This document shows, one piece after another, positions 17,676 through 35,841 of a stretch of 57,355 nt of DNA. The stretch covers positions 1 to 57,355 of the forward strand of contig CABVRZ010000029.1 in assembly GCA_902500775.1 (NCBI GenBank). The letters run 5' to 3'. How positions within the stretch are numbered: the stretch's first letter is position 1; every line of letters begins with the position of its first letter. Both the position numbers and the translations under genes were made by a program. This DNA is from an uncultured Nitrospira sp. Its GTDB lineage: Bacteria > Nitrospirota > Nitrospiria > Nitrospirales > Nitrospiraceae. The notes under the pieces are model-generated. The model saw only the letters and a list, made by a program, of their open reading frames with translations. It made no database searches and was not told where the DNA came from.

Positions 17676-20600
17676 GTGGCTGATCACACCAAACAAAGCG
17701 GGCAGATCAAGTCTAGCGCTCAAGACAAGTGTGAACCGGAAAATCCTGCGCGAGCAGAGGGGGCATCCGCCACGAACCCGCTCGAACAACAGTCAGTTGC
17801 TGAATGTCAATCTGTCGTACTCGAGGCGTCTACCGCCGTGGAATTGGCCATGGAGGGGATTTCCAAACTCGATGATGCCGGGTGCTATGTCTTTGTGAAT
17901 CAGCAGTATGCTGCTCTGTTGGACTATCATCCTGACGATCTGATCGGACAATCATGGGAGATCACGGTGCATCCGGATGACCGGCCATCCGTTCTGACGG
18001 CATTCGCCAGGATGCTCGAGATTGGGAAAGCAGAGGTGGAACTGCGCGGGGTAAAAAAAGATGGAGGTATCATCTACAAACGAGTGGTGCTGGTCAAGCA
18101 CGATGGGTCAAGAAGGAGAGTCTCTGGCCATTTTTGCTTTGTGTGGGATGTGACCGAGCGGAAGCGAGAAGAAGCTCTTCACGATGCAGAAAAGCAGGCA
18201 TTGGAACTGGTGGCCAAGGGAGAAACTCTTGAGTGCGTACTTGGGTTTGTCTGCCAGGCCGTCGAGAGCCTTGCGCCTCCCATGCTCTGCTCCGTCATGC
18301 TCGCTGATGAGGACGGAGCGTATCTGTCGCTGGCGACGGCGCCCAACCTTCCTGATGAATACAATCGGGCCATTAAGCGTATTCCTATCGGGCCTATGAG
18401 TGGATCCTGCGGAAGTGCTGCTTATTTTCAAACACCTACCATCGTGAGAGACATTGCGACTGATCCCTTGTGGAAGGACTACGCCTCAGTGGCCCTGACC
18501 TATGGGCTAAAGGCCTGTTGGTCGCTGCCGATCATCAGTTCGAACAATAGGGTGCTCGGAACACTTGCGGTATACCATGATGAGCCGCAGGAGCCTCAGC
18601 CGGCCGATTTAAAGATTCTCGGGCGAGTCTGCCAGATTGCCGCCCTGATCATCCAACATACTAGGGTGACTACGGCCTTGCAAGAAAGTGAAGGGCGGTT
18701 CCAAGCATTTATGCGCCATAGTCCTGCGGTCATCTTCATCAAGGATGGCGTGGGTCGCTATGTCTATGTGAACTCGCAGTTCGAGACGCTATCTCATATA
18801 TCGAGAGAAGAAGCAAAAAGTAAGACAGTGTTTGACTTCTTGCCGATGGATACCGCAACCAGGCTTTCTCAGGACGATGAGGCGGTACTTGCCGCCGGTC
18901 AGATTCTTCAGACTGAAGTACCGTTGCGAGATCCGGACGGCACCGTTCGGGATTGGCTCGTTATCAAGTTTCCCCTCACGGTTGGACAGCGACCATTGCT
19001 CGGCGGTATCGCCGTCGACATCACTGAGAGGAAAAGGCTCGAACAAGCGAATCAGGACGAAGTAGATCGTCTCCGTCTGGCGACGGACATCGCTCAATTG
19101 GCGATCTGGGATTGGAATATTCTCACCAACCAGATCATCTGGTCAGAGAACTGCGAAGAAGTAAAGGGACTGCCTCGCGGCTCGTTCGATGGCACGTTTG
19201 AAGCCTATCAGCGAGTCATACATCCGGAAGACCTTCAGAGGCTGCAGGCGGATATCCAGTGCGCACTCAGCGGTCAACAACCCTACCGCACGGAACACCG
19301 GATCATACTGCCGACGGGCGAGGTGCAGTGGGTTGAGGGGAACGGTGTGGTCTATCGAGACGGGCAGGAAAGCCCCATTCGCATGGTGGGCACGTTAAGA
19401 AACATCACCGAACGGAAACGCATTGAACAGGCCATGCAGCTGAACGAAGACCGGTTTGCCAGGGCCACCGCAGTGGGGAAAGTCGGGGTTTGGGAATTAG
19501 ATGTGCAGGCAGGCACCTACTATGGCGATAAGAATCTCAAAGCGATGTTCGGGTATGAGCCGGATGAGCTCTCAGTCGACCCTCTTGTCTGGCTCAATCT
19601 CGTCCACCCGGAGGATCAAGCCATTGCGATGGCTCACTGGCAGCGGATCCTGAGGCGCGAGGTCGACGACTACAACTATGAATTGCGCATGGTCAGAAAG
19701 GACGGCACGATCATCTGGACCGATATACGAGGTCATGCCGTTAGTGATGGTGATGGCCAGGTGACGCATCTGATTGGGGCAACCCTGGATATTACTGCTC
19801 GCAAACAGACTGACGAAAACCTCCGACGTACGCAGTTTGCAATGGACGAAGCGGTGGATGCGGTCTACTGGATCGATCCTCAGGCCAGGATCCTCTATAC
19901 CAACGATGCAGCCAGCACGATGCTGGGCTATACCAAAGAGGAATTCTTGCGCATGACGGTCCACGACCTGAATCCGGAGTTTCCTGTGGCGGTGTGGCCT
20001 GGGTGGTGGGCGGAGATGAGAGACAAGAAAGTAATGTCCCTGGAGACGGTCCATCTGACGAAAAACGGCCGGCGGATTCCCATCGACATCCGTGTAGCGT
20101 TCCTGGCCCATGACGGTCAGGAATTCCACTGCGCCTTCGTTCGCGATATCGGTGAGCGAAAACGGGACGAGAGTGCTATGAAGGCCCTTGTTCGTGGGAC
20201 CGGAGCGGTGACCGGCAAGGCCTTTTTCCCGGTCTTCGTCAAGGAGATTGTGAGTGCGCTGGGTGTCAAGTATGCCGCGGTCACCGATCTTCATGGCAAC
20301 CCTCCGGTTCGAGCGTCCATACGTGCAATGTGGAGTAGTGAGGACTGGATCTGTCCGGCTGAGTATGCGCTGGCCGGGACACCGTGCGAGGTGGTGGTGC
20401 GTGATGGATTCGCGAGTTATAAGTCTGGACTACAGCAGCTCTTTCCGAATAACGCTGATCTCGCCAAGTTTGGTGCCGAAAGCTATCTCGGCATTCTCCT
20501 ACGGGATGGGTCTGGAGCAGCGTTGGGACACATCTGTGTCATCGATGACAAGCCGCTCTCTGAGCTGGATCGGGTAAAAGCGATTCTTCAGGTGTTTGCT

Positions 20601-23036
20601 GCGCGGGCGGCAGCCGAATTAGAGCGAAGTAGGATCGACGAGGCGTTACGAGCCAGCCAAGAACGGTTTGAATTGGCCGTTCGAGGCACCAGAGATGGCA
20701 TCTGGGACTGGAATATTCTGACCGGAGGCGTGTCTTGGTCCGAGCGTACCGTCGAGTTGTTAGGCGAGAAGCTAGGTGACGTGGTCCCGTCGCATGGCGC
20801 ATGGAGGACACGTATCCATCCTACTGATGTGGATTATTTCGACCAAGCCCTGCGTCGGCATTTAGACCATCACGCGCCCTACGATATCCAGCTGCGCGTG
20901 AAGATGAAGGATGGGACATATCGTTGGTTTCGTGACCAGGGGCAGGCTGTGTGGGAGGCTTCTGGCCGGCCGGTGCGGATGGTCGGCTCCATTTCCGATA
21001 TCACCGATCAGCGAAATGCTGAGGAGGCGCTGTGGAAGGCCCACACCGAGCTTGAGCAGCGGGTCGTGGAGCGGACGATCGCACTGGCGACAGCCAATAG
21101 TACATTACAAGAAGAAGTTGCTGAACGGAAACGAATAGAAGACCGGCTGGAACGGACTCAATATGCTGTCGACCACGCCGGTGACCAAATATTCGTTATC
21201 GGGTCGAACGGACATATTCTCGACGTGAATGAGTCGGCCTGTTGCCGGTTGGGCTATACCAAAACAGAACTTCTGACGATGTCGATGATGGAGATTGATC
21301 AGGATTTTCCCCCCGAAGCATGGGCCGCATGCTGGGCGCAAGTGAGACAAAAGAAACAGCTTCGGTTCGAAACCAGGCATCGCAGTAAGTCGGGTGAGAT
21401 CTATCCGGTGGAAGTGGTGGCGAACTATCTGTGCCACAATGGGCAGGAGCTCGATTGTGCGATCGTGCGTGATGTGACGGAACGGAGGCGGATTGAAGAC
21501 CGACTGAAGCGGACCCAATATGCCGTCGATCACGCTGCCGATCAAATCTTCATCATCGGTTCGAACGGATACTTTCTCGACGCGAATGAATCGGCCTGCT
21601 GCTCTTTGGGGTATAGCAAAGAAGAACTCTTGACGATGTCGGTCATGGACATCGATCCTGATTGTTCCTTGGAGGTGTGGCGGAAAATGTGGGAGGAGTT
21701 TACCCACTCGCAGGGAATGCGACTGGAGAGGCGGCATCGGAGTAAAACTGGAGCGATCTATCCGGTCGAAGTCCTGGCCAAATATCTGCTTCACAACGGA
21801 CAAGAGCTTTCGTACTCCACTGTGCGCGATATCACCGAACGCCAACGGACCGAGGAAGTTATCCGCGAAAGTGAACTGCGCTACAAGCTACTGACAGAGG
21901 CCACGTTCGATGGTATTGCCATCCATGATCAGGGCATTTTGCTTGAGGTAAATACCGGGTTAGAGCGAATGTTCGGCTATGAATCGGGCGAGCTCATCGG
22001 CCGGTCCATGTGGGATCTGATCGCCGAGGAGTCCCACGAGTACGTGGTGCGCAAGTTGCAAGATGGTGCAAGCGGGCCCTATGAGTTCGTCGGGCGTCGC
22101 AAGGACGGCTCGCCCATTCTTGGCGAAGTCGTTGCTCGGCCCTATCGGTATCGGGGACAGGACGTTCGTCTGGTGGCGGGCCGGGACATTACCGGGCGCA
22201 AGCAGCTGGAGTTTCAGATGACCCGCCATACAGAGGAATTAGCACGGCAGGTGGCCGAACGGACGGCCGAAATCGCCACATTAGAGTCACAGCGAGCACA
22301 GGTCGAGAAGCTCGCCGCAGTCGGTCAGTTGGCTGCTGCGGTTGCCCATGAAATCAATAATCCCATTGCGGGTATCAAGAACGCCTTCACGCTGGTCAAA
22401 CAGGCCGTCGACCGGGCTCATCCCCACGCTGAATTTGTCGAGATGATCGATCGGGAAATTGCCCGCGTGGCGGCTATTGTCCGCAATATGTATCAGCTCT
22501 ATCGAAAGGAACCGAGCCGGGTGGAAGCGGTCGATCTGCAGCTTCTTTGCCGTGATTTGGAAGAGTTGTTTGCCAAACGTCTCTCGCAGCAGGGCATTCT
22601 GTTCTCTGTCAGCCTGCCGCCCTCGTCCACAAACCTGGTCGTTCCACAAAGCGACCTGTTGCAAGTCCTAATGAATCTCATTCAGAACGCCATCGATTCA
22701 TCGGCTCATGGAAGAGCGATCAGGGTGAAGGTCCACCAGGACCAGAGCCTGGTGGTGATTAGTGTATCCGACGAGGGGGATGGGATTTCGCCCGACGTGC
22801 TTCCGCATATCTTCGACCCATTCTTTACGACCAAGACAGAGAAGGATCAGAAGGGAATGGGGTTGGGGCTCTCGGTGTCTCAGAGCCTGGTGATGGCGAT
22901 GGGTGGAAGGATCGACGTCCAGACGGAACCGGGGAGCGGCTCAACATTTTCAGTGGTCTTGCCACAGTCCATCGCTGAGAACCATTCTACGGCTCAACGG
23001 AACATCATCAAGGAGGTGCTGACACATGAGACATGA
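17676..23036 (+). CDS. Giant multi-PAS/GAF sensor histidine kinase (NtrB-type core)
   Basis: A 1786-residue soluble kinase. Approximate domains: PAS1 48-161, GAF1 168-328, PAS2 338-452, PAS3 463-578, PAS4 588-705, PAS5 718-828, GAF2 835-988, PAS6 996-1112, coiled coil 1118-1155, PAS7 1158-1268, PAS8 1276-1388, PAS9 1398-1508, HisKA 1541-1605 (phospho-acceptor His1558 in AAVAHEINNPIAG), HATPase 1655-1767 (LMNLIQNAID, SDEGDGISPD, GMGLGLSVSQSL). PAS7 and PAS8 are recent copies of each other. There are no membrane segments, so it integrates cytoplasmic signals. A GTG start is supported by GGGGAG. Its last codons overlap the response regulator gene by 11 bp, so the two are translationally coupled partners. 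The signals are unknown. Confidence 0.93.
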   Translation: MADHTKQSGQIKSSAQDKCEPENPARAEGASATNPLEQQSVAECQSVVLEASTAVELAMEGISKLDDAGCYVFVNQQYAALLDYHPDDLIGQSWEITVHPDDRPSVLTAFARMLEIGKAEVELRGVKKDGGIIYKRVVLVKHDGSRRRVSGHFCFVWDVTERKREEALHDAEKQALELVAKGETLECVLGFVCQAVESLAPPMLCSVMLADEDGAYLSLATAPNLPDEYNRAIKRIPIGPMSGSCGSAAYFQTPTIVRDIATDPLWKDYASVALTYGLKACWSLPIISSNNRVLGTLAVYHDEPQEPQPADLKILGRVCQIAALIIQHTRVTTALQESEGRFQAFMRHSPAVIFIKDGVGRYVYVNSQFETLSHISREEAKSKTVFDFLPMDTATRLSQDDEAVLAAGQILQTEVPLRDPDGTVRDWLVIKFPLTVGQRPLLGGIAVDITERKRLEQANQDEVDRLRLATDIAQLAIWDWNILTNQIIWSENCEEVKGLPRGSFDGTFEAYQRVIHPEDLQRLQADIQCALSGQQPYRTEHRIILPTGEVQWVEGNGVVYRDGQESPIRMVGTLRNITERKRIEQAMQLNEDRFARATAVGKVGVWELDVQAGTYYGDKNLKAMFGYEPDELSVDPLVWLNLVHPEDQAIAMAHWQRILRREVDDYNYELRMVRKDGTIIWTDIRGHAVSDGDGQVTHLIGATLDITARKQTDENLRRTQFAMDEAVDAVYWIDPQARILYTNDAASTMLGYTKEEFLRMTVHDLNPEFPVAVWPGWWAEMRDKKVMSLETVHLTKNGRRIPIDIRVAFLAHDGQEFHCAFVRDIGERKRDESAMKALVRGTGAVTGKAFFPVFVKEIVSALGVKYAAVTDLHGNPPVRASIRAMWSSEDWICPAEYALAGTPCEVVVRDGFASYKSGLQQLFPNNADLAKFGAESYLGILLRDGSGAALGHICVIDDKPLSELDRVKAILQVFAARAAAELERSRIDEALRASQERFELAVRGTRDGIWDWNILTGGVSWSERTVELLGEKLGDVVPSHGAWRTRIHPTDVDYFDQALRRHLDHHAPYDIQLRVKMKDGTYRWFRDQGQAVWEASGRPVRMVGSISDITDQRNAEEALWKAHTELEQRVVERTIALATANSTLQEEVAERKRIEDRLERTQYAVDHAGDQIFVIGSNGHILDVNESACCRLGYTKTELLTMSMMEIDQDFPPEAWAACWAQVRQKKQLRFETRHRSKSGEIYPVEVVANYLCHNGQELDCAIVRDVTERRRIEDRLKRTQYAVDHAADQIFIIGSNGYFLDANESACCSLGYSKEELLTMSVMDIDPDCSLEVWRKMWEEFTHSQGMRLERRHRSKTGAIYPVEVLAKYLLHNGQELSYSTVRDITERQRTEEVIRESELRYKLLTEATFDGIAIHDQGILLEVNTGLERMFGYESGELIGRSMWDLIAEESHEYVVRKLQDGASGPYEFVGRRKDGSPILGEVVARPYRYRGQDVRLVAGRDITGRKQLEFQMTRHTEELARQVAERTAEIATLESQRAQVEKLAAVGQLAAAVAHEINNPIAGIKNAFTLVKQAVDRAHPHAEFVEMIDREIARVAAIVRNMYQLYRKEPSRVEAVDLQLLCRDLEELFAKRLSQQGILFSVSLPPSSTNLVVPQSDLLQVLMNLIQNAIDSSAHGRAIRVKVHQDQSLVVISVSDEGDGISPDVLPHIFDPFFTTKTEKDQKGMGLGLSVSQSLVMAMGGRIDVQTEPGSGSTFSVVLPQSIAENHSTAQRNIIKEVLTHET

Positions 23037-23829
23037 GTCTCCAAGAATTCTACTGGCCGACGACGAAGATACGTTTCGTCTGTCTACGGCCAAGCTTCTT
23101 GAGCAGGAGGGGTATCGCTGTGATTGCGCACAGGACTCGGAGGAAGCCAGTCGATTATTGACGAGTCAACACGATGTGCTTCTCTCCGATATTCGAATGC
23201 CGGGTAATATGCAGTTCGAATTTCTCCATGATATCCGGAGGCGGTTCCCTTCGCTTCCCATCGTGTTAGTGACCGGCTATCCCTCCGTACAAACAGCTGT
23301 GGAAGCGCTCCGTCTATCATTCACAGACTACTTACTTAAACCGGTTGACTGGCTGGATTTGCTTCGAGCTGTCAAACAGGCTTCGGAAAAGTCGCGCATT
23401 CTGCGCATGACGGATGTCGCGCAGGATGAAACGGATCGAGTCGGGACCGCACTGGATCATGTGCGGGAGCTCCTGTCGAGGCCAGGAACGATGGCCAACG
23501 AGCGGGAGCTGACATGGTCGATCGAGGCATTTCTGAGTCAAAGTGTGGGACAGATGGCTACCCTGGCGACGGGGATTCGTGCGGTCATGGCGAATCCATC
23601 GACAGCCCCAACCAAGGCGACGGCGGATGTGTGTCGTGTGTTGGACTGTCCAAGACGCGTGGCCTACCGGGAAGCATTGGAAGGCACAGTGGAGGTGCTG
23701 GAGAAGACAAAGTTCGCCTTTCGATCCAAGGAGCTGGGGCTCTTACGAAGAAAGATCGAAGACTTGCTTAAGGCAGATGGACTGGGCGAATCTGGGTCGC
23801 TTCGAATGGAAGACGGGACAGAAGACTGA
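23026..23829 (+). CDS. Response regulator with receiver and an uncharacterised helical C-terminal domain
   Basis: A 267-residue protein. The N-terminal receiver (about 5-125) has acidic residues in LLADDEDTF, phosphoacceptor Asp in LLSDIRMPG and Lys in YLLKPVDW, all as required. The remaining 140 residues are helical, with no HTH, GGDEF, EAL or HD-GYP motif that I can see; SQSVGQMATLATGIRAVM and later CPRRVAYREALEGTVEVLEK are the most regular parts. The coupled kinase gene upstream is its likely phosphodonor. The output may therefore be protein-protein binding. What the C-terminal domain does I cannot say. Confidence 0.85.
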   Translation: MRHESPRILLADDEDTFRLSTAKLLEQEGYRCDCAQDSEEASRLLTSQHDVLLSDIRMPGNMQFEFLHDIRRRFPSLPIVLVTGYPSVQTAVEALRLSFTDYLLKPVDWLDLLRAVKQASEKSRILRMTDVAQDETDRVGTALDHVRELLSRPGTMANERELTWSIEAFLSQSVGQMATLATGIRAVMANPSTAPTKATADVCRVLDCPRRVAYREALEGTVEVLEKTKFAFRSKELGLLRRKIEDLLKADGLGESGSLRMEDGTED

Positions 23830-24142: not shown

Positions 24143-25426
24143 ATGCCCTGGTTGCCGCTTGATCCGGTTCTGCTTCGCCTTGGGCTCTATATCAAAATCG
24201 ATCACGCCTGGATGGACCATCCCTTCGTCCGCAATATCTTCACGGTTTCCTCGCCGACTGAAATCGCCATTATTCGGAAACACCAGCTCACGAAGCTGCT
24301 CTACGACCCCGAACGCTCGCATGCCGATGTCGTCGCCGCCATTACCGATCCATCAATTCCAGTGAAAGAATTCGAAATTGATGCTGAGACGGCACAGGAT
24401 GCCGAGGCCGATGAAGCCTCGATTCTGAAGGAAAAGCATCTTCAGCTTCAGACTGTCGTCGAGCATCGGAAAGCCATCGAAGAGAATGTTCGTGTCTATG
24501 GTGAGTCGACGAATGAGGTTGCGGTCATGATGGCCATGGCGAATGCGGGACAAGCGGATATGTTGCGTTCCGCCTCAAAAATCCTGTCGAATATGGGTAA
24601 TGTTGTCAGTCAGGGGGAGGTGGCACTCAGCCTGGTCTGTGCGGAGAGCCGACCTGAACCGGGACAGGAATTGGCGATGCAGGGTATCAATGTCAGCGCA
24701 CTGGCCACATTGACTGCAAAAACACTCGGCCTCAGTCAGGAGGAAACGGAGTTTGTCGGAATGGGTGCCTTGTTTCACAACATCGGGATGAGTCGAGTCC
24801 CGCTGGCGGTTCGCGTGAAAAATGAGGAGGATTTGTCTCCGACGGAAGTCAAGCTGCTTCGGATGTATCCGCAGCTCGGCAAGGAGATTCTTGAAGCGAT
24901 TTCTGGTGTGCCTGAGGCAGTCATCGAGATTGTCTATCAACACCGGGAATATCTTGATGGCACTGGGTTTCCCAAGCGGCTTATTAACGGCGACATCTCC
25001 AAGCTGGCACGATTGGTTGGAGCGATCGTCGAGTACAATCTGCTTACCAACGATCAGCGGTCTTCACGCTATCTCGGATCAGGACAGGCGCTCGCGTATC
25101 TTTATACAAAGCTGAAGAACAAGTATGGGCCGGACGTAATCGAGCCGTTTATTGCGACCGTCACAGTGTTTCCGCCTGGGTCATTTGTGGAATTGGACGA
25201 CAGCAGTTTTGGATTGGTACTCAAGAGTAATACACAGGAGCGGTTACGGCCCGTCATTATGCTCTATGAGCGGCAAGCATCACACGATCAGCCGGCCATC
25301 ATCGATTTGGCACGGGAACGCTCGCTCTCGATCATACGAGCATTAGATCCCAAAGGACTCCCGGATCGGGTGAAGGAGGCACTCCTCACGACGAAACTGA
25401 AAGGGTATGTGATCACAGGGAAGTAG
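24143..25426 (+). CDS. DUF3391 / HD-GYP-like protein with degenerate metal site (paralog 1)
   Basis: A 427-residue protein. The N-terminus (about 1-65, LGLYIKIDHAWMDHPFVRN) is a DUF3391 domain, the usual partner of HD-GYP. The C-terminal HD-GYP fold (about 180-350) keeps the motif layout but not the key residues. HD is His212-Asn213 (FHNIGMSRVP), the HP of the next motif is MYPQLG, and HHExxDGxGYP is QHREYLDGTGFP. Most of the metal-binding ligands of active c-di-GMP phosphodiesterases are therefore replaced. I infer loss of catalysis and perhaps a ligand-binding or structural role. A helical linker with AEADEASILKEK joins the domains. The ATG at 24143 is preferred over a TTG one codon upstream; GGAGAG lies upstream. 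Confidence 0.85.
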   Translation: MPWLPLDPVLLRLGLYIKIDHAWMDHPFVRNIFTVSSPTEIAIIRKHQLTKLLYDPERSHADVVAAITDPSIPVKEFEIDAETAQDAEADEASILKEKHLQLQTVVEHRKAIEENVRVYGESTNEVAVMMAMANAGQADMLRSASKILSNMGNVVSQGEVALSLVCAESRPEPGQELAMQGINVSALATLTAKTLGLSQEETEFVGMGALFHNIGMSRVPLAVRVKNEEDLSPTEVKLLRMYPQLGKEILEAISGVPEAVIEIVYQHREYLDGTGFPKRLINGDISKLARLVGAIVEYNLLTNDQRSSRYLGSGQALAYLYTKLKNKYGPDVIEPFIATVTVFPPGSFVELDDSSFGLVLKSNTQERLRPVIMLYERQASHDQPAIIDLARERSLSIIRALDPKGLPDRVKEALLTTKLKGYVITGK

Positions 25427-25776
25427 TCCTCTTGGCCCGTTGCAATGTGACATTCTCGACAGAATTCCCTGTGTTGATGTGTACCGTGGTGCATATGTGA
25501 ACCAGCCTTCTCAGCCGCATCTGACTCCGTTCAATCCATTACTCGAGAGTCTTATCTCCTCCGAAGCAAGGAACATGAATTGCTTTCGCATCCGTGGGCA
25601 CCTCTTTCTGGTCAGTCCACTTGCTCGCAATTGAGTCGGCTGAGATGTGCCACTGTGATTGGTGTGACGGCAGTCCTCCGGTGGCAGTTGTCGTGTTGGG
25701 TATCAGATCGACGCTCAATAGTGGGGTGGTCCGCTCTTGCCGAAGCGAACCGCACGTATGACCATCATCGATAGGA
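25427..25776. other. Intergenic stretch, no recognisable gene
   Basis: This is the 350-bp interval between paralog 1 and the response-regulator pseudogene. Frames on both strands are short and contain no motif that I know. It may be further decayed sequence, but nothing supports a call. Confidence 0.5.
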
Positions 25777-26439
25777 ACCCGGGACCACGCGCGCCTGTTG
25801 CTGGTTGATGCATCACCGTTCGTGTTGGAGGAGATACGGGAGACTCTGGCCAAGGGTTCTCATCTTCGTGTCGTTGGAACCGCATAGTCCACAGCCGACG
25901 CGTTGTCTGCCGTACAGATCTGTCGTCCAACCATCGTGGTCTAGGAGGTGCAAATGGGACAGGTGAGTGGGATCGACCTATAACGTACGATCCAAGAATC
26001 TTATTCCGAGACCAGTGTTTTGTTCTTCACAAACCGAGATGATCAGCACCTCTTGCGGTCTGCCATTCCTGTGGGCGCGCAGGGGTATCTGTCGAAGAAG
26101 ACCTCAGCTGAAGCCGTCGTCAGAGGGATTGAAATCGTCTCCGAAGGGATGGCCATCATGGATCCTCACTTGGTTCTCCACATCATCTCATGGGGAGAGA
26201 GGGGGGTGCCATTCCAACGGTTGAACGAGAGTTCAGAAGACGAGATTCGAGTGCTGGCACTCATGAGGGCCGGGAAGATCAATAAAGAGATTGCGCACTA
26301 ACTCAGGGTTTCGCTGGTAACGCTGAGGATTCGTCTTCGGGCCCTCTATAAGCGGCTGAACATTTCGAGGCGACCAGAGGTCGCAAAGTATTATACGGGG
26401 CGGCGAAAGGCAAAATACCCAACTAGTGACAAGTTCTAA
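25777..26439 (+). pseudogene. NarL/FixJ-type response regulator with four in-frame stops
   Basis: One continuous frame of about 220 codons reads through a whole receiver plus LuxR-type HTH protein. The receiver begins LLLVDASPFVLEEIRETL, continues CRPTIVV and SGIDL, then GAQGYLSKKTSAEAVVRGI. The HTH part reads ESSEDEIRVLALMRAGKINKEIAH and, after a stop, LRVSLVTLRIRLRALYKRLNI. It is broken by TAG at 25885 and 25942 and TAA at 25981 and 26299, all in frame, with no frameshift. The phospho-acceptor Asp appears as Glu after the second stop. The natural end is the TAA at 26437. The gene is dead unless the stops are read through. It lies between the two HD-GYP-like paralogs. Confidence 0.85.
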
Positions 26440-26648
26440 GAATCGGAGCATCAGGAGCCTGTGCGATGCTCCGCACGCGTCTCTCGACTCCAACACAGCT
26501 GAAATACCGAGATGGGGTTGTTCAGGCATGAGTGTAATGGCCCTAGGTAGGGCCTAAGGTCTCTGGTGGAGAGATGCATGATATGGTAGGAGAGACTCTG
26601 TAACAGATTGGAATCCAAAGTAAGTAGTAGCAAAGGACGACCTGTACT

Positions 26649-27932
26649 GTGGCGTGGCTCCCGCTTGACCCAGCTCTGCTCCGAGTCGGACTCTATATCA
26701 AGATCGATCATTCCTGGATGGAGCATCCGTTTGTCCGCAATGTCTTTACGGTCTCCTCGCCGACGGAAATCGCCATTATTCTGAAGCATCGGCTCACCAA
26801 GATCTTTTATGATCCCACGCTCTCTCATGCCGATGTCGTCGAGTCCCTGAGCCAGCCTTCGGCTCTCGTCCGCCCATTCGAAGTCGATGCGGAAACCGAG
26901 AAGGATGCCGAGGCCGATGAGCAGTCGATTCTCAAGGAGAAACAGCGGCAGCTTCAGACGGCGATCGAGCATCGTCAGGCGATCGAAGACAATTCGCGCA
27001 CCTATGCCAAGGCGATCACTGAGGTGTCGGTCATCATGGCCATGGCCAATGCCGGACAGCCCAGTACCATGCAGGCGGCGATGAAGATCTCGGAGACAAT
27101 GGGCAAGGTCACGGCACAAGAGCCTGTCCTGCTGAGTCTCGTCTGTGCAGAAAGTCGAGCGGAACCTGGCCAGGAGTTGGCTATGCAGGCGATGAATGTC
27201 AGCGCTCTTGCCAAGCTCACGGCTAAGACCCTAGGCCTCAGCCCTGAAGAAACCGAACATGTCGGGATGGGTGGCCTCTTTCACAACATCGGAATGAATC
27301 GGGTTCCGTTGGCAGTCCGCCTCAAGAGCGAGGAAGACCTCTCGCCCACGGAAGCTAAGCTGGTTCGGATGTATCCTCAGTTGGGCAAGGAAATTCTGGA
27401 TGCTATGCCTGATGTGGCTCCTGAGATCGTCGAGATCGTCCACCAACATCGGGAATATCTCGACGGCACGGGATACCCCAAGAAGCTCATCAACGGGGAT
27501 ATCACCAAGACGGCACGATTGGTCGGGACGATTGTCGAGTATAATCTGCGGGTCAGTGATCGACGGTCACCGCGCTACCTTAGTCCAAGCCAAGCGTTGA
27601 CGTATCTCTACACGAAGATGCGGAATAAATATGGCCCGGACGTAATTGACCCCTTCATTGCCACGGTCACCGTCTTTCCGCCCGGTTCATTTGTGGAATT
27701 AAGTGACGGGAGCTTTGGGTTGGTGATCAAGACCAATAGCCAGGAGCGTTTGCGTCCGGTCATCATGCTCTATGAACGGAATGCATCGCACGATCAAGCG
27801 GCGATTATTGATTTGGCGCGGGAACGATCGCTCTCGATCGAGAAGAGCCTAGATCCGAAGACATTGCCTGAGCGGGTCAAGAATGCATTGCTGCCGACGC
27901 AACTCAATGGCTATTTGATGACGGAAAAATGA
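26649..27932 (+). CDS. DUF3391 / HD-GYP-like protein with degenerate metal site (paralog 2)
   Basis: A 427-residue paralog of the protein at 24143, co-linear with no gaps in the stretches that I aligned by eye; about 80% of the first 64 residues are identical. It has the same domain plan: DUF3391 (LPLDPALLRVGLYIKIDHSW), an acidic helical linker, and the HD-GYP-like fold. It has the same replacements: His212-Asn213 (FHNIGMNRVP) instead of HD, MYPQLG instead of HP, and QHREYLDGTGYP instead of HHE. Shared loss of the same ligands in both copies means that the change predates duplication and the fold is still under selection. The start is a GTG at 26649 with only a weak ribosome-binding site. It converges on the HPt gene. 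Confidence 0.85.
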   Translation: MAWLPLDPALLRVGLYIKIDHSWMEHPFVRNVFTVSSPTEIAIILKHRLTKIFYDPTLSHADVVESLSQPSALVRPFEVDAETEKDAEADEQSILKEKQRQLQTAIEHRQAIEDNSRTYAKAITEVSVIMAMANAGQPSTMQAAMKISETMGKVTAQEPVLLSLVCAESRAEPGQELAMQAMNVSALAKLTAKTLGLSPEETEHVGMGGLFHNIGMNRVPLAVRLKSEEDLSPTEAKLVRMYPQLGKEILDAMPDVAPEIVEIVHQHREYLDGTGYPKKLINGDITKTARLVGTIVEYNLRVSDRRSPRYLSPSQALTYLYTKMRNKYGPDVIDPFIATVTVFPPGSFVELSDGSFGLVIKTNSQERLRPVIMLYERNASHDQAAIIDLARERSLSIEKSLDPKTLPERVKNALLPTQLNGYLMTEK

Positions 27933-27989: not shown

Positions 27990-28325
27990 TCAGTCGTAGG
28001 CGATCTGGATGGTATTCACATAGGCTTCCAGGGTATGCAACTGTCGGGTGATGCTCGTGGCATCTGCCGATTTGGCTGCCTGCTCAATGGCGGCGGCGAG
28101 TTCCGTAACCCGGTCGAATCCGTAGCTCCCACCGACTCCTTTCATCCCATGTGCGACGCTCCGCACCGTCTCAAAGTCCTGCCCACTCAAGGCCTGCCGC
28201 ATCGTGACGATTTCTTTTTTCCGATTCGCCATAAAGCGCGGTATCAGGGGTTCGAATGAGGAATCAATATGAACGATCTCCGGAGGCGGAGTTATCGACG
28301 GTGTGTTCAGTGGAGCGTCTGACAT
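27990..28325 (-). CDS. Histidine phosphotransfer (HPt) protein
   Basis: A 111-residue single HPt domain with phospho-accepting His59 in RSVAHGMKGVGGSYGF. The N-terminal 20 residues are Pro-rich and flexible. It is the last gene of a minus-strand operon with a receiver protein and two hybrid kinases, and so supplies the missing carrier for a multi-step His-Asp-His-Asp relay. Its target receiver may be the REC protein encoded 13 bp upstream or one elsewhere. The 57 bp to the convergent paralog 2 gene hold no obvious terminator. Confidence 0.9.
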   Translation of the reverse strand: MSDAPLNTPSITPPPEIVHIDSSFEPLIPRFMANRKKEIVTMRQALSGQDFETVRSVAHGMKGVGGSYGFDRVTELAAAIEQAAKSADATSITRQLHTLEAYVNTIQIAYD

Positions 28326-28338
28326 AACGGTATTCCTT

Positions 28339-28734
28339 TCAGGCGCTACGACGTTTCAAGCCAGGTACTCGAAAACGAGCGAGCCTGGCCAGCAAGGGCT
28401 CTCGCTTAAACGGTTTCAAAACATAATCAGATGCGCCGGCCATGATCGCTTTGCAGATGTGTGTTTGATCGCCATCAGCGGTCAACATCACGACCGAGAC
28501 GCCGTTCCATGTCGACTTTTTTCGAATATGGGCGAGGAGTTCAAGCCCATGCATGTGCGGCAGCTCCATATCCAGGAGAACCAGAGCCGGCGGTGGTAGC
28601 GCATCAATCTTGACCTGCGCCTGCTTGCCGTCATTCGCATGGACCACGTCGTAGCCTTCTTCTTCCATAATCATTCGAATGAGGGTGGCGGTATCCTCTT
28701 CGTCCTCGACGAGAAAGAGAGTCGGTTTGTTCAT
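28339..28734 (-). CDS. Single-domain response regulator (REC)
   Basis: A 131-residue receiver without output domain. Acidic residues lie in LFLVEDEEDTA, the phosphoacceptor is Asp55 (LVLLDMELPHMHG), with Thr in VVMLTADG and Lys in YVLKPFKR. The C-terminus has a short basic tail (RVPGLKRRSA). It sits between the hybrid kinase and the HPt gene, so it could be the relay terminus or a phosphate sink. It is not of the CheY switch-binding type (ELPHM instead of DWNMP/DLNMP). Confidence 0.9.
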   Translation of the reverse strand: MNKPTLFLVEDEEDTATLIRMIMEEEGYDVVHANDGKQAQVKIDALPPPALVLLDMELPHMHGLELLAHIRKKSTWNGVSVVMLTADGDQTHICKAIMAGASDYVLKPFKREPLLARLARFRVPGLKRRSA

Positions 28735-28756: not shown

Positions 28757-31700
28757 TCAGGCGGCTTGGTCTTGGATCAGTCCGGTATGGCCCTCGATAG
28801 CCTTCAGTAAATCTGGTTTCTTGATCGGTTTCGTCAGATGGGCCGTATAACCAGCCGCCAGACTCTTCTCTCGCTCTTCAGCCAGGGCCTGGGCAGTGAG
28901 GGCGACGATGGGCACTGGTGGACGACCTTGCGCACGTTCCCACTGACGGATCGTCGCCGTGGCTTGGAGACCATCCATGATCGGCATCTGCACGTCCATG
29001 AGGACAATGTCATACGAATTGGTCTGAATTTTTTCAACGGCTTCCACGCCGTTTTCGGCTGTCTCCAAGGCGTACGGCAGATTTTTCAGGAAGAGAATCA
29101 CAAGGTCTCGATTGTCTTCCAGATCGTCCACCACCAGGATGCGAAGTGGACGGAGACTCGCTCGAGTGGGCGGGGGGTCCTGGTCCAGGCTGAGCATGGC
29201 AGGGGCCGATTGTCCCATGATCGCATCTCGAGCCGTCATGAGTAAGCTCAACCGCGAAACTGGTTTGATGATCTGATGTGAGATGCCGAACTCCTGCATA
29301 CGGGCGCGGTCGGACGGCTGTGTATCGGAGATAAGGAAGAGGACGGGAAGGTCTTTTCCGGTCGGCATCCTCCGCACGGTGTTCATGAGTTCAAGACCAT
29401 CCATGTCCGACATGCGGTGATCCACGATCATGAGCTGCACCGGCTGGTTGTTGGCCTGGGCGGTCTGGAGATGGGCGATGGCAAGCGGACCTGACGCTGC
29501 GTCGTTGACGAGCGCGCCAGCTTCCGAGAGGATCTCAGCGATGACGAGACGTGTCAGTTGGTGGTCGTCCACGACCAGAATTCGCGTGCCTTGCAGGGCA
29601 AGGCGATTCGGGTCTGCTGACGTTGTGCTGAGCGGGATGACCGGCAACGGAACCGTGAAGACAAAGTTGGAACCGACATTAGGAGTACTGGTCACAGAGA
29701 TGTCGCCGTCCATAAGCTCCACCAGTCGTTTGCAGATGCTGAGACCGAGCCCAGTGCCGCCGTATTTACGCGTGGTAGACGTATCGGCCTGGGAGAAACT
29801 GTTAAAGATGGACCCGAGCTTCTCGGCTGGGATACCGATGCCGGTGTCCGAGACAGAAAATCTGAACTGACCGGATTCGGCCGGTTCGACCTGAACTAGA
29901 ACCTGACCTGCTTCCGTGAATTTTATTGCGTTGCCCACTAGATTCACGAGGATCTGGCGAAGCCTTGTTGGATCTCCGGAGACCACTTCAGGGAGACCTG
30001 GACATACCCGCACAACAAAGTCGATCGGTTTGGCATGGGCGCGCACGGCCATCATCTCACCGATGTTCTCCATGAGAGAGTGCAGATTGACAGGAACCGT
30101 TTCCAACTCCAAATGTCCCGATTCAATTTTCGAGAGATCCAGAATGTCGTTGATCAGCTCCAGTAAGTGATCGCTGGCTCGCCTGAGACGCCGGGTGTAG
30201 TCCTGTTGTTCGGGGGTAAGCGAGGTTTCGCCGAGTAGCTGTGCCATGCCCACGATCGAGTTCATTGGAGTTCGAATCTCGTGACTCATCGACGCTAAGA
30301 AGTTGCTCTTCGCTTCGGTTGCCTCCCGCACCTCGTCATTCGCCATTTCCAGCTCGAGGTTGATGCATTCCATTTGGATGGCCGCTTGTTCGAGCTTCGT
30401 TTCGGAAGCTCTGCGATCGGTGACATCGCGGAGGATTCCGGCGAAGGCGCGGCGGTTGCTAAACTGAATCTCGCTGACGGCTAAGTCGAGAGGAAAGGTC
30501 GATCCATCTTTCCGTTTGCCGACGACTTCGCGTCCGATCCCGATAATTTTGCGATGACCGGTTCTCTTGTAGTTATCAAGATAGCCGTCATGTTCAGATC
30601 GGTACGGTTCCGGCATGAGCAGTTTGACGTTCTGCCCGATGGCCTCGGCCGAGGTGTAGCCGAACATGCGCTCGGCCGCTATATTGAACGATTCGATGAT
30701 GCCGCGGTCGTTGATGGTGACGATTCCGTCTACCGCATTACTGACGATCGCCTGCAGGTGCGCTTCCTGCTCATATCGCGCAATCTCCGCTTCTTTCTGA
30801 GCTGTGATATCAGTGGCAAACTTGACGATCTTATAGATCTCGCCATTGGCGTTGAGGGTCGGGTTATAGGATGTTTGAAGCCAGATGGACTTTCCACCCT
30901 TGGTGACTCGCTGGTACGTGCCGGTCTCGAAGTGCCCTTGGCCGAGCCGTTGCCAAAAGGCTGCATAGTCGTTGCTCTTCACGTAGGTCGGATCACAGAA
31001 AATCCGGTGATGGGAGCCAATCAATTCATCCTTGTCATACCCGCTCAATCTTAAGAAGTTTTCGTTCGCGTCGATAATCGTCCCCTGCAAGTCGAACTCG
31101 ATGATGGAATAGGTATGATTGATGGCTATCATCGTGTGTTTTGCTTCGAGTACGCCTGCAACATCGGCCTCGATCTTCCCTGCCATCTCATTGAAAGCCA
31201 GTGCCAGCTGTCCGATTTCGTCTTGTGTGGTGAGGTTCGCTCGGGCCTGAAGATCGCCGGCTCTCATCGCAATTGTCGCCGTGACGATGTTTGTCAGATC
31301 AACCGAGATCTTCTGGAAGATCGTCCATCCTAAGAAGAGCCCACAGGCCAATCCTCCGATCGTAATCAGGAGGATGTAGTAGATGATGTCTGACACCAGC
31401 CTCGTGTTGATGGCATGCTCTTCCGCAAGCAGGTTCTTGTTCAGCTCGATAAGCCGTTGAATCGCCACGGTGAATGCCACAAGCTGTACAGTTCCTTCGC
31501 CTCTCTGGAGCTCAGCCGCAGCATCTTTACTATAGAGCGTACTCAGCTGGAGTACCTTCGCCTGCACAGCCTGGATCTCACGCCACCGTGCCTTGATGTC
31601 ATCATAGAGTGCTTGTTCCTCTCGTGACTTGACATGTTTCGCATAGCTTTTTAGCTGCTCGTGGAATGCCTCGTCTAATGCGGTGATTTCACTCTCTTGG

Positions 31701-31951
31701 AGCTTCATCATGGCAGATCCATAGGCCAGAATATGCCAGGCAATCGCCGTTTGCATTTTGAAACTTGCGGCACGCAGGTCGTCGAGTTGAGCGGTCGGGA
31801 GTATGTGGGTTGGGTAGAGGGTATCGATACGCTCATTGAGCTGGATGATACTTCGAACGGAAAGAACACCCATCCCAACCAGCAGCAGCCCCATCAAGGC
31901 AAACGCTATGGCCAGTTTACTCAGAATGCTCAGATCTCGAAATCTCTTCAT
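28757..31951 (-). CDS. Membrane hybrid histidine kinase: 4HB sensor, HAMP, two PAS, HisKA, HATPase, two receivers
   Basis: A 1064-residue protein. Membrane helix 1 (about 13-35), a periplasmic four-helix-bundle sensor (about 36-187), helix 2 (about 189-212) and HAMP (about 213-262) resemble chemoreceptors. PAS1 (about 275-390, with GSHHRIFCDPTYVKSNDYAAF) is close to the PAS of the receptor at 14905. PAS2 spans about 395-515. HisKA has His557 (ASMSHEIRTPMNSI), then HATPase (about 655-770) and two receivers (about 790-910, phosphosite in IVDHRMSDMDG; about 935-1055, phosphosite in LMDVQMPIMDG). Hybrid kinases usually need an HPt carrier, which the operon supplies. The ATG at 31951 begins the membrane-helix segment. 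Confidence 0.93.
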   Translation of the reverse strand: MKRFRDLSILSKLAIAFALMGLLLVGMGVLSVRSIIQLNERIDTLYPTHILPTAQLDDLRAASFKMQTAIAWHILAYGSAMMKLQESEITALDEAFHEQLKSYAKHVKSREEQALYDDIKARWREIQAVQAKVLQLSTLYSKDAAAELQRGEGTVQLVAFTVAIQRLIELNKNLLAEEHAINTRLVSDIIYYILLITIGGLACGLFLGWTIFQKISVDLTNIVTATIAMRAGDLQARANLTTQDEIGQLALAFNEMAGKIEADVAGVLEAKHTMIAINHTYSIIEFDLQGTIIDANENFLRLSGYDKDELIGSHHRIFCDPTYVKSNDYAAFWQRLGQGHFETGTYQRVTKGGKSIWLQTSYNPTLNANGEIYKIVKFATDITAQKEAEIARYEQEAHLQAIVSNAVDGIVTINDRGIIESFNIAAERMFGYTSAEAIGQNVKLLMPEPYRSEHDGYLDNYKRTGHRKIIGIGREVVGKRKDGSTFPLDLAVSEIQFSNRRAFAGILRDVTDRRASETKLEQAAIQMECINLELEMANDEVREATEAKSNFLASMSHEIRTPMNSIVGMAQLLGETSLTPEQQDYTRRLRRASDHLLELINDILDLSKIESGHLELETVPVNLHSLMENIGEMMAVRAHAKPIDFVVRVCPGLPEVVSGDPTRLRQILVNLVGNAIKFTEAGQVLVQVEPAESGQFRFSVSDTGIGIPAEKLGSIFNSFSQADTSTTRKYGGTGLGLSICKRLVELMDGDISVTSTPNVGSNFVFTVPLPVIPLSTTSADPNRLALQGTRILVVDDHQLTRLVIAEILSEAGALVNDAASGPLAIAHLQTAQANNQPVQLMIVDHRMSDMDGLELMNTVRRMPTGKDLPVLFLISDTQPSDRARMQEFGISHQIIKPVSRLSLLMTARDAIMGQSAPAMLSLDQDPPPTRASLRPLRILVVDDLEDNRDLVILFLKNLPYALETAENGVEAVEKIQTNSYDIVLMDVQMPIMDGLQATATIRQWERAQGRPPVPIVALTAQALAEEREKSLAAGYTAHLTKPIKKPDLLKAIEGHTGLIQDQAA

Positions 31952-31964
31952 ACATCCCTCAGTC

Positions 31965-34900
31965 CTATGCTGCTCGCTCGGTGTCCGGCGCGGTATAATC
32001 GAGAATTGCTCTGAGTAGGTCCCGTTTTTTAATCGGCTTGGTTAAATGTGCGGTGCAGCCGGCATCCAGACTTTTCTTCGCCTCCTCCTCAAGCGCATAG
32101 GCGGTGAGCGCAAGAATCGGGGTGGGGGTACGGTGGTGAGCCCGTTCCCATTGACGAATCGCACTGGTGGCCTGAAGCCCGTCCATGAGCGGCATTTGCA
32201 CATCCATGAGTACAAGGTCGTACCTGCCTGTCTGAAATTTCTCGACGGCCATTTGGCCATTTTCAGCCATCTCGACGGCATAGGAGCTGTTCTTCAGATA
32301 ATGCGTCACGATCGCACGATTATCTTCGAGATCGTCGACGACTAAAATATTGAGCGGTCGCGATGACGGTGCGGAGATCGGTTCGGTTTGTCCCTGAACG
32401 TGGCTGTTTGATGGCGGAGTCACTGTGTCGATCACGCTTGGCAAACGGACGGTGAATTCAAACGTCGACCCGACCCCGATGGTGCTCGTTGCTTTGAGTT
32501 GCCCCTGCATCAGGGAGACTAATTGCTGGCAAATGGAGAGTCCTAGGCCCGTGCCGCCGAACTTGCGCGTAGTGGTTGCATCCCCCTGTGTGAAGCTCTC
32601 AAAAATAAACGGGAGCTTGTCCGACGGAATGCCGATGCCGGTATCCGAGACCGTAAATCGCACACGATCGGGAGGTATCGCGTGGACCGTCAGCACGACC
32701 TGTCCTCGCTCGGTGAACTTGATGGCATTACCGACGAGATTGAGGAGTATTTGTCGTAGACGCGTGGGATCACCGATGACAGTTGAAGGGACATCGGGCT
32801 GGATTTGCGTATCCAACACGAGCTGCTTGGTCTCGGCGTTTCTCCCCATTAGATCGCGTACTGTGTTCACCAGCTCACGAGGGTTGAAACAGATCTGTTC
32901 CAACTGAAGCTCGCCGGCTTCGATTTTGGAAAGATCCAGAATGTTATTGACCAACGCCATGAGATGGTCGGCGGCGCGACTAAAGCGTTGGACATAGTCC
33001 GCCTGGTCTTGACTAAGCGAGGTCTCTTGGAGCATGTCGGCCATCCCGACAATGGCGTTCAATGGTGTGCGGATCTCGTGACTCATGGAGGCCAGGAAGA
33101 TACTCTTAGCTTCGGTTGACTTCGTGGCCTGTTCGTGTGCGGCGGCGAGTGCCTGGTTCTGCTCTTCCATGATCCGTGCGGCCTGTTCCAGTTGTCTCTC
33201 GACTGCATAGTGTTCGGTGATATCCACATGGGTGCCGACCATGCGTAAGGGCTTCCCATTCTGATCTCGAACGATCATCGCTCTAGACAGGATGTCGACC
33301 AGGCGGCCGTCTTTGTGACGCATCTGGAATTCGGTCTTAAACCCGTTGCTTTTTCCGCAGAGACAGTCATGGATGAGGGCCATCGTCCATACCCGGTCGT
33401 CTTCGTCCACCAGTCGTTCCCAGGTGGCAAAGCTATTGTCGAGTTCGTGGTCCGCATAGCCCAGCATCGCTTTCCATTGCGGAGACAAGTACGTGCTCTG
33501 AGTTTGAATATTCCAGTCCCAGAGGCCGTCCGTGGCGGCCTGCATGGCCAAGGTGAAGCGTTCTTCCGATTCTCGTAACCGGGTTTCTGTGGTTCGCTGA
33601 GCAGAGACATCTTCATACATCCCAAGCACACCGATAACCTGGTTGTTTCGGTCTTTAAGCGGCACCTTCGAGGTTCGTAACCAGGCGGTGTGACCGGACG
33701 GAGTCGTTTGCGGCTCGTCGAAGGCGATCCTCGGACTCTCAGACTCGATGACTGTCGTATCGTCGGCTTGATAGCGTCCAGCTTCATTGGCCCAGACGAG
33801 ATCGTAATCACTCTTGCCAAGCAATTCACTGGGGTCACTCAGCCCGGCATCCCTCGCGAAGGCAGGGTTGCCGCCGAGGTAGCGTGATGCACGATCCTTC
33901 CAGAACACTCGCACGGGGACGGTGTCGATCACGGCCTGCAAGAGATCGCTTTTCATGGCCAGCTCTTGGGTGCGTTCGTTGACCTGCATTCGCACACGGT
34001 TGGTCGTACCGGTAATCAGCAATAAGGTGGAACCTACGAGACCAGCAGTGATGACGCCTCCCACCAGCAGGCTCCAACTTTGGAAGCTGTCGTAGGAGGC
34101 GACGAAGCGTGCTGAGGGTCTCACCTGTAGCCGGTATTCCCTGCCCCCGAACTGTAATGTGTCCAAAAATTCTATCGCCATAGGTTGAGAGGGATGCGTT
34201 TCATACAGCACCTGCTTCAAGCCCACATCGGTGAGCGTCACGTCCATGTCCTCTCCGTTCGGCAGAAACTGTTTTAGGAAGTCGCCGATGCGCAGCACGG
34301 TCAGGACTAGGCTAGGGGCATGGGGGCCTTCTCGGATACGCTTGAGCAAGAGGACGCTTGTTTGGGACTCCTGTTCCTGTACCAAGGTGACGGGTTCGGT
34401 GGCGATGGGAGTATCGGATTGGAGTGCCTGTAGCACGGCCTTCATGCGAGATGGATGCGAACCCAGATCAAAGCCGAGGGCTTTCTCGTTCCGAGTCAGT
34501 GGTTCGATATAGGTGACAGGGTAGTAGGTGGGCCGGTCTGGTGCAGAGACGAGCGCGCCCTCCTCGTTACGATGGCGAATCATAAATTCAGAAATGGATT
34601 TCTTCTGGAATGCTTCGAATGCGGTGCGCCGGCTCAAGGCAATCTCCGGGACCCACTCGATGGCTTGCAGCATGGGGAAACGGGTCAAGGCAGGCTGTGC
34701 GAGGGCTCGAAAGGATTCACGGTCGATCAACTCGTGTTGAGATATGGAGAAGGCGGTATCCAGTTGATTCAGAATGAACAGCTGCTCGTCGAAATGATCC
34801 TGAATCGTCCTCGCCAGGCGGTTGGCTTGGAAATGAAATGATTGGGTCATTTTCGCGGACTCGATCTGACGGACGCTGACATAGGCCAGTCCTACGAGCA

Positions 34901-35507: not shown

Positions 35508-35841
35508 GAAAGGATCGTCCGTCCGGTCCGCGACTCCACCACACGTGACTGGTGCTTCGGGCCTCCGTGAGTGACTGTGCGGAGTCTCGCCAGCCATCTT
35601 GGGAAGGCGTGCTATGGAATACATTCTAAGGGGTTGGGTTCTCGCTGCAATAGGAAAAAGAATTTCTTCTCTTGTCGGACGATTTTTGGCCATTCTTGAG
35701 TCGACACGAGGTCTAACACCCCGAAATTGCTCTGGTCACCTCCTGTCCCTGTCAAGAATCGATAGCAACCGACCGATAAAGCCAAGACTTTACAGGAGTG
35801 GGTAGGAACTTGGCGCGTTGCATTCACCTGGTGGAGTGACT
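35508..35841. other. Divergent intergenic region with candidate sigma-28 promoter for cheR
   Basis: This is a 334-bp gap between the hybrid kinase start (minus) and cheR (plus). TCAAGAAT (35752-35759) and ACCGATAA (35772-35779) resemble the sigma-28 elements TAAAGTTT and GCCGATAA, five and seven of eight bases, with a 12-bp spacer. It lies 63 bp upstream of cheR. The spacing is one base longer than optimal. I found no other gene in the gap; short frames overlap the kinase N-terminus. Confidence 0.4.

What the first reader, a model, noticed from the sequence alone, without database searches (positions are those of the whole stretch)
24143..27932. Tandem HD-GYP-like paralogs share the same loss of metal ligands
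Both 427-residue proteins keep the DUF3391 plus HD-GYP layout but show HN for HD (His212-Asn213), MYP for HP and QHR for HHE. Key residues were lost before the duplication, yet both copies remain intact and similar along the stretches aligned by eye. This suggests a conserved non-catalytic subfamily, perhaps a c-di-GMP sensor or partner protein, tandem-duplicated in this genome.
Basis: partly seen in the sequence, partly recalled or inferred. Interest (0 to 1): 0.6.

Follow-up and report, generated by a model that had tools for sequence, protein, structure and literature searches.

The report
Metal-ligand-free HD-GYP paralogues in Nitrospira
Two neighbouring genes in a Nitrospira genome encode HD-GYP proteins, relatives of the enzymes that break down the bacterial messenger c-di-GMP, that have lost the metal-binding residues needed for that chemistry but are still strongly conserved in related species, so they most likely work as signalling proteins rather than enzymes.

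Summary
Both genes (24143-25426 and 26649-27932, +) are intact DUF3391 + HD-GYP proteins of 427 aa, 73% identical. Against structurally studied PmGH they lack ligands H189 (Q180), D222 (N213), H250 (Y242), H277 (R268) and D305 (V296). 'QHR for HHE' should read HRE for HHE: the first His and the Glu are kept. The GYP loop is intact.

The losses are ancestral to a whole subfamily: 20 sequences form one 100/100-supported clade, found in 9 of 79 searched genomes of the genus, with up to four copies per genome. Copy 1 and copy 2 each have orthologues in at least five other species, so the tandem duplication is not specific to this genome. Orthologue dN/dS is 0.04-0.11, 0.059 in the HD-GYP domain and 0.006 in the GYP loop. 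A response-regulator gene between the copies is a pseudogene here but intact in four relatives.

Most likely a metal-free, non-catalytic HD-GYP signalling module. The kind is known: Bd1817, PA2572, VC1087 and especially DvhD, which binds c-di-GMP without metals. DvhD's nucleotide contacts are mostly not conserved here, so c-di-GMP binding is possible but unsupported. Interest modest.

The parts
24143..25426 (+). Copy 1: DUF3391 + ligand-free HD-GYP + C-terminal beta region, 427 aa
   Evidence: intact ORF; Pfam DUF3391 and HD_5; AlphaFold model pLDDT 87; orthologues at the same locus in five other species
26649..27932 (+). Copy 2: paralogue of copy 1, 427 aa, GTG start
   Evidence: intact ORF; Pfam; 73% identical to copy 1; orthologues 87-95% identical in other species, some partial
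25705..26439 (+). Pseudogene of a NarL/LuxR-type response regulator between the copies, in one frame with stops at 25759, 25885, 25942, 25981 and 26299
   Evidence: tblastn to intact relatives, 56-66% identity; stop list and codon alignment
17676..23036 (+). Multi-PAS/GAF histidine kinase, 1786 aa, upstream in the conserved cluster
   Evidence: Pfam; synteny in relatives
23026..23829 (+). Response regulator with receiver domain, 267 aa
   Evidence: Pfam Response_reg; 70-90% identical in relatives
27990..28325 (-). Hpt phosphotransfer protein, 111 aa
   Evidence: Pfam Hpt; synteny
28339..28734 (-). Single-domain receiver protein, 131 aa
   Evidence: Pfam Response_reg; synteny
28757..31951 (-). 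Hybrid histidine kinase, 1064 aa
   Evidence: ORF with FLASMSHEIRTPMN His-box and receiver motifs read from the sequence; synteny
31965..35693 (-). Hybrid histidine kinase with an N-terminal membrane sensor region, 1242 aa
   Evidence: ORF read from the sequence; synteny

Best explanation
The two genes are old, conserved paralogues in a clade of Nitrospira HD-GYP proteins that lost the active-site metal ligands before they diversified. They fold like HD-GYP proteins but cannot build the di- or tri-nuclear metal centre and so do not hydrolyse c-di-GMP. Shown: sequence, losses, single origin, purifying selection, retained GYP loop and conserved position inside a multi-kinase phosphorelay cluster. 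Inferred: they act as non-catalytic signalling modules whose output is protein contact, probably as dimers through the stalk helix and the GYP-loop face, in or next to the neighbouring two-component circuit. A small ligand may still occupy the old pocket, but that step is open. Copies 1 and 2 have diverged (22 fixed differences) and are both maintained, so they probably have separate partners or inputs.
For: Five of eight PmGH metal ligands replaced in essentially all members while 39 outgroup proteins keep nearly all of the same positions; in PmGH, alanine at H189, H221, D222, H250, H276 or H277 each essentially abolishes hydrolysis (PMC4159591). One origin of the state, 100/100, stem length 1.05. 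Replacements are themselves invariant or nearly so: N213, Y242, R268 in 20/20, Q180 and M216 in 19/20. Orthologue dN/dS 0.04-0.11, copy 1 versus copy 2 0.147; HD-GYP domain 0.059 and GYP loop 0.006 against 0.15 in the linker. Model pLDDT 87; best solved match is the inactive HD-GYP Bd1817, Z 24.3, 2.9 A over 222 residues, with DvhD and PmGH next. The kinase-RR-copy1-RR-copy2-Hpt-RR-hybrid kinase order recurs in five other species, in full or in part where contigs end.
Against: No biochemical data. His212, His267 and Glu176 remain, so weak binding of a single metal is not excluded. Absence of c-di-GMP hydrolysis is inferred from homologues. No partner protein was identified; the GYP loop is also well conserved in outgroup proteins (0.74 against 0.93 mean major-residue frequency), so its conservation alone does not prove an interaction surface.
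Confidence: 0.7

Rival explanations
1. Metal-free c-di-GMP (or other cyclic dinucleotide) receptors: the degenerate HD-GYP pocket binds the nucleotide without metals, as in DvhD, and changes dimer geometry.
For: Direct precedent: DvhD has SQ for HD and MN for HH, no metal, binds c-di-GMP with Kd about 99 nM and does not hydrolyse it (PMC13090378). DvhD is among the closest folds (Z 18.8). Gly and Pro of GYP, Leu/Met231 (DvhD L577) and Pro220 (DvhD P567) are kept; Arg at position 305 (DvhD R650) is present in copy 2 and some paralogues.
Against: DvhD K582, Y652 and E668 equivalents are not conserved; position 305 is Gln in copy 1 and its orthologues and varies in the family; the GYP Tyr is Phe in copy 1. 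The sequence alignment to DvhD is weak (E 1e-4). But the outgroup proteins that keep the metal ligands also lack R314/K317, so these residues are a poor test.
Confidence: 0.3
2. Dominant-negative or regulatory partner of an active HD-GYP paralogue: the inactive protein heterodimerises with a catalytic HD-GYP from the same genome and tunes it.
For: The genome encodes further HD-GYP proteins with intact HD, HH and Asp motifs, and HD-GYP proteins dimerise (PMC4159591, PMC13090378).
Against: No active paralogue lies beside any copy; other genomic HD-GYPs are only 24-29% identical, and the stalk region, the likely dimer interface, is the fastest-evolving part.
Confidence: 0.15
3. Still an enzyme, using the residual His212/His267/Glu176 set, possibly with one metal and another substrate.
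For: Two His and one Glu of the PmGH ligand set are invariant; the pocket region is strongly conserved.
Against: The HD-superfamily mononuclear site normally uses the H189, H221, D222 and D305 equivalents (general knowledge of the superfamily), three of which are lost; the catalytic Lys and D183 equivalents are Met and Gly.
Confidence: 0.06
4. Decaying genes on the way to pseudogenes.
For: A remnant without an intact frame exists in one relative (G027); the adjacent response regulator is already a pseudogene in this genome.
Against: dN/dS 0.04-0.11 between orthologues, and invariant replacement residues.
Confidence: 0.03

Closest known systems
DvhD HD-GYP domain, Desulfovibrio vulgaris (PDB 9rbz, 9rc0)
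   Same: HD-GYP fold with GYP loop, metal ligands lost, no hydrolysis in vitro
   Different: DvhD is a membrane dCache-PAS-HD-GYP receptor with SQ/MN substitutions; these are DUF3391 proteins with HN/YP/HRE/V, and most of its nucleotide contacts are absent here
Bd1817, Bdellovibrio bacteriovorus (PDB 3tm8, 3tmb-d)
   Same: Best structural match (Z 24.3) and top profile hit; N-terminal DUF3391 (PMC12943098) plus HD-GYP; no c-di-GMP hydrolysis
   Different: Bd1817 keeps HD and a binuclear iron centre and lacks the GYP Tyr; here the GYP motif is kept and the ligands are lost
PA2572 (YN-GYP), Pseudomonas aeruginosa; VC1087 and VCA0895, Vibrio cholerae
   Same: HD-GYP proteins without an intact HD motif, without detectable activity, in signalling contexts
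   Different: PA2572 and VC1087 carry their own receiver domain and VCA0895 a HAMP domain; none is reported as a multi-paralogue clade with a DUF3391 domain
DUF3391-HD-GYP proteins of Nitrospirales (HDIGE/LDIGE single-copy group and order-level relatives)
   Same: Same architecture including the conserved C-terminal region; closest sequence outgroups
   Different: They keep H189, D222, H250, H276 and H277; most have Glu for the catalytic Lys

Membership tests
HD-GYP domain family (by descent) | Sequence and fold similarity to HD-GYP domains | tested here: met
   HD_5 above cut-off; PDB profile hits Bd1817, PA4781, V-cGAP3, PmGH; fold Z 24.3 to 14.4
HD-GYP domain family (by descent) | GYP loop, HHExxDGxGYP | tested here: inconclusive
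   HRExxDGTG[YF]P: loop kept, one His lost, Tyr or Phe
Active c-di-GMP phosphodiesterase of HD-GYP type | Metal ligands H189, H221, D222, H250, H276, H277, D305 and Lys225 | tested here: not met
   Q, H, N, Y, H, R, V, M
Active c-di-GMP phosphodiesterase of HD-GYP type | Hydrolysis of c-di-GMP | not testable with these tools
   needs purified protein
DUF3391-HD-GYP proteins | N-terminal DUF3391 (PF11871) | tested here: met
   62.8 and 66.0 bits against 27.8
Metal-free c-di-GMP receptor of DvhD type | Loss of metal ligands with retained HD-GYP fold | tested here: met
Metal-free c-di-GMP receptor of DvhD type | Nucleotide-contact residues L577, K582, Y621, M646, R650, Y652, E668 | tested here: inconclusive
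   L/M231 and Y/F276 similar, R305 only in copy 2 and some paralogues, others not conserved; alignment weak
Metal-free c-di-GMP receptor of DvhD type | c-di-GMP binding | not testable with these tools
   needs ITC or similar
Bd1817-type inactive HD-GYP | Binuclear iron centre with HD kept and GYP Tyr missing | tested here: not met
   here HD is HN and the Tyr/Phe position is occupied

The most novel reading that the evidence does not exclude
A Nitrospira-specific set of metal-free HD-GYP receptors, multiplied into paralogues with different ligand or partner specificity (for example Phe276/Gln305 in copy 1 against Tyr276/Arg305 in most copy 2 sequences), coupled to phosphorelay clusters and to response regulators that are losing their own phosphorylation site.
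Probability: 0.22. Interest if true: 0.55.

Novelty: new member of a known kind. Interest (0 to 1): 0.33.

Why it matters
It gives a sequence-defined, multi-species HD-GYP subfamily in which catalytic loss is ancestral, near-complete and followed by strong conservation and paralogue expansion. That makes it a clean test of what an HD-GYP domain does without metals, in organisms (nitrifying and probably complete-ammonia-oxidising Nitrospira) where c-di-GMP signalling is little studied. Annotation by domain name would call these proteins c-di-GMP phosphodiesterases, which is most likely wrong.

Tried and rejected
First AlphaFold job on the 18 close relatives alone gave pLDDT 55.7 and was discarded; adding 59 outgroup sequences gave 87.2. 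NCBIfam gave only a sub-threshold hit to a NosR-family HD-GYP model (85-93 bits against cut-off 400). A link to complete ammonia oxidation was checked with PF02461: 7 of the 9 carriers have it, but so do 49 of 79 genus genomes, so it is not specific. A hidden extra copy in the gap before copy 2 in G037 and G076 was looked for and not found; the gap holds a toxin-antitoxin-like pair. No paper on HD-GYP pseudoenzymes by that word, nor on Nitrospira HD-GYP proteins as a subject, was found in the held library.

Full report
Observation. Two ORFs of 427 aa lie at 24143-25426 and 26649-27932 on the + strand. Both carry DUF3391 and an HD_5 (HD-GYP) domain above Pfam cut-offs and are 73% identical. A third paralogue, 74% identical, lies on another contig of the same genome (G000:C2:108475-109755). 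The remaining HD-GYP-like genes of the genome are only 24-29% identical.

Ligands. Pairwise and profile alignments to PmGH, Bd1817, PA4781 and V-cGAP3 and a joint alignment with 39 outgroup proteins fix the register. PmGH E185, H189, H221, D222, K225, H250, H276, H277, D305, D308 correspond to E176, Q180, H212, N213, M216, Y242, H267, R268, V296, N299. Its 'QHR for HHE' is shifted by one residue: the aligned triplet is HRE, so the first His and the Glu are retained. The outgroup has H189, D222, H250, H276 and H277 in 39/39; the subfamily has them in 1/20, 0/20, 0/20, 20/20 and 0/20. Alanine at H189, H221, D222, H250, H276 or H277 of PmGH essentially abolishes hydrolysis (PMC4159591). The absence of catalysis here is therefore a strong inference, not a measurement.

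Origin and age. P0001 and then a profile from 18 family members were run over the genus, family and phylum. Family members occur in 9 of 79 searched genomes of the genus, one of them only as a remnant (G027). A maximum-likelihood tree of 70 sequences puts all 20 ligand-less proteins in one clade (100/100) on a stem of 1.05, next to a protein from another family of the phylum (L100) that keeps HDIGK, HP and HHE; the tree program warns that this particular join unites long branches. Copy 1 of the window groups with copies from five other species (100/97), copy 2 with copies from six (100/100). So the ligands were lost before diversification and the tandem duplication is older than these species. 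G005 and G010 have an additional copy between the two.

Selection. Nei-Gojobori dN/dS is 0.147 between the window copies and 0.04-0.11 between orthologues; synonymous distance between the window copies is high (pS 0.61), so that value is rough. By region, pooled over orthologue pairs, the HD-GYP domain has 0.059, DUF3391 0.080, the C-terminal region 0.070, the linker helix 0.150 and the GYP loop 0.006. The replacement residues N213, Y242 and R268 are invariant. The domain is kept for something other than the canonical chemistry. There are 22 fixed differences between copy-1 and copy-2 orthologues, among them Gln/Arg at 305; position 276 is Phe in copy 1 and Tyr in all but one copy 2.

Structure. 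An AlphaFold model on 77 sequences reached pLDDT 87.2 and pTM 0.78. The closest solved structure is the inactive HD-GYP protein Bd1817 (Z 24.3, 2.9 A, 222 residues), followed by c-di-GMP-bound DvhD (18.8), PmGH (18.3) and PA4781 (17.4).

Context. The same gene order surrounds the copies in G005, G009, G010, G037 and G076, in full or in part where contigs end: PAS kinase, receiver protein, copy 1, NarL-type response regulator, copy 2, then Hpt, CheY-like receiver and hybrid kinases on the other strand. In the window the NarL-type regulator is a pseudogene with five in-frame stops and no frameshift (25705-26439), while it is intact in G005, G009, G010 and G037. Other copies (G000:C2, G009:C8, G035:C13) also have a LuxR-type regulator immediately upstream. 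The receiver phosphorylation site of these neighbours is Asp in G009 and G027, Glu in G005, G010 and G037, and Ala or Gly at the second locus, where nearby regulators keep Asp. The regulators drift and die while the HD-GYP-like proteins stay.

Mechanism. The best-supported reading is a metal-free, non-catalytic HD-GYP signalling module. The published protein that works most similarly is DvhD, whose degenerate HD-GYP domain binds c-di-GMP without metal and changes dimer geometry (PMC13090378). Of its nucleotide contacts, the Leu577 and Tyr621 positions are similar here and Arg650 is matched only in copy 2 and some paralogues; Lys582, Tyr652 and Glu668 are not conserved (the numbering offset of 490 between chain index and DvhD residue was set by matching Tyr621 to the GYP Tyr and checking Met646, Arg650, Tyr652 and Arg653). 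Because outgroup proteins with full metal ligands also lack the PmGH base-contact residues R314 and K317, these positions cannot decide. Protein interaction, possibly ligand-gated, is therefore preferred and nucleotide sensing is left as the main rival.

Novelty. Degenerate HD-GYP proteins are known (Bd1817; PA2572 YN-GYP, PMC3411652; VC1087 and VCA0895, PMC4212101; DvhD). This is a new, well-defined member of that kind: a Nitrospira clade with its own substitution pattern and paralogue expansion. I found no description of it in the held library.

Noticed in passing
25705-26439: NarL-type response regulator pseudogene with five in-frame stops and no frameshift; orthologues in G005, G010 and G037 are intact but carry Glu at the phosphorylation site.
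   Followed up: yes
L048:7814-8623, L039:6899-7669, L044:5867-6352: LuxR-type regulators upstream of other family copies have lost the receiver Asp (Ala or Gly) and conserved Lys; the L044 one is truncated to 161 aa.
   Followed up: partly
L073-L091 (single-copy group in Nitrospiraceae): A widespread single-copy DUF3391-HD-GYP group has Glu in place of the catalytic Lys (HDIGE), and in one genus mostly also LD for HD: a second, partly degenerate lineage.
   Followed up: partly
L041:7548-8243, L043:8570-9265: A small toxin-antitoxin-like pair (PIN-like plus DUF433-like by eye) sits between the response regulator and the next copy, flanked by a repeat of the regulator's 3' end.
   Followed up: partly
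L047:6742-7652: Remnant family gene in G027 without an intact full-length frame, next to an intact response regulator.
   Followed up: partly
G000:C30:93-800: Ammonia monooxygenase family gene (PF02461) in the window's own genome, suggesting a comammox-type Nitrospira.
   Followed up: no
L048:4249-5448: A FIST-domain sensor protein lies beside the third paralogue in the window's genome.
   Followed up: no
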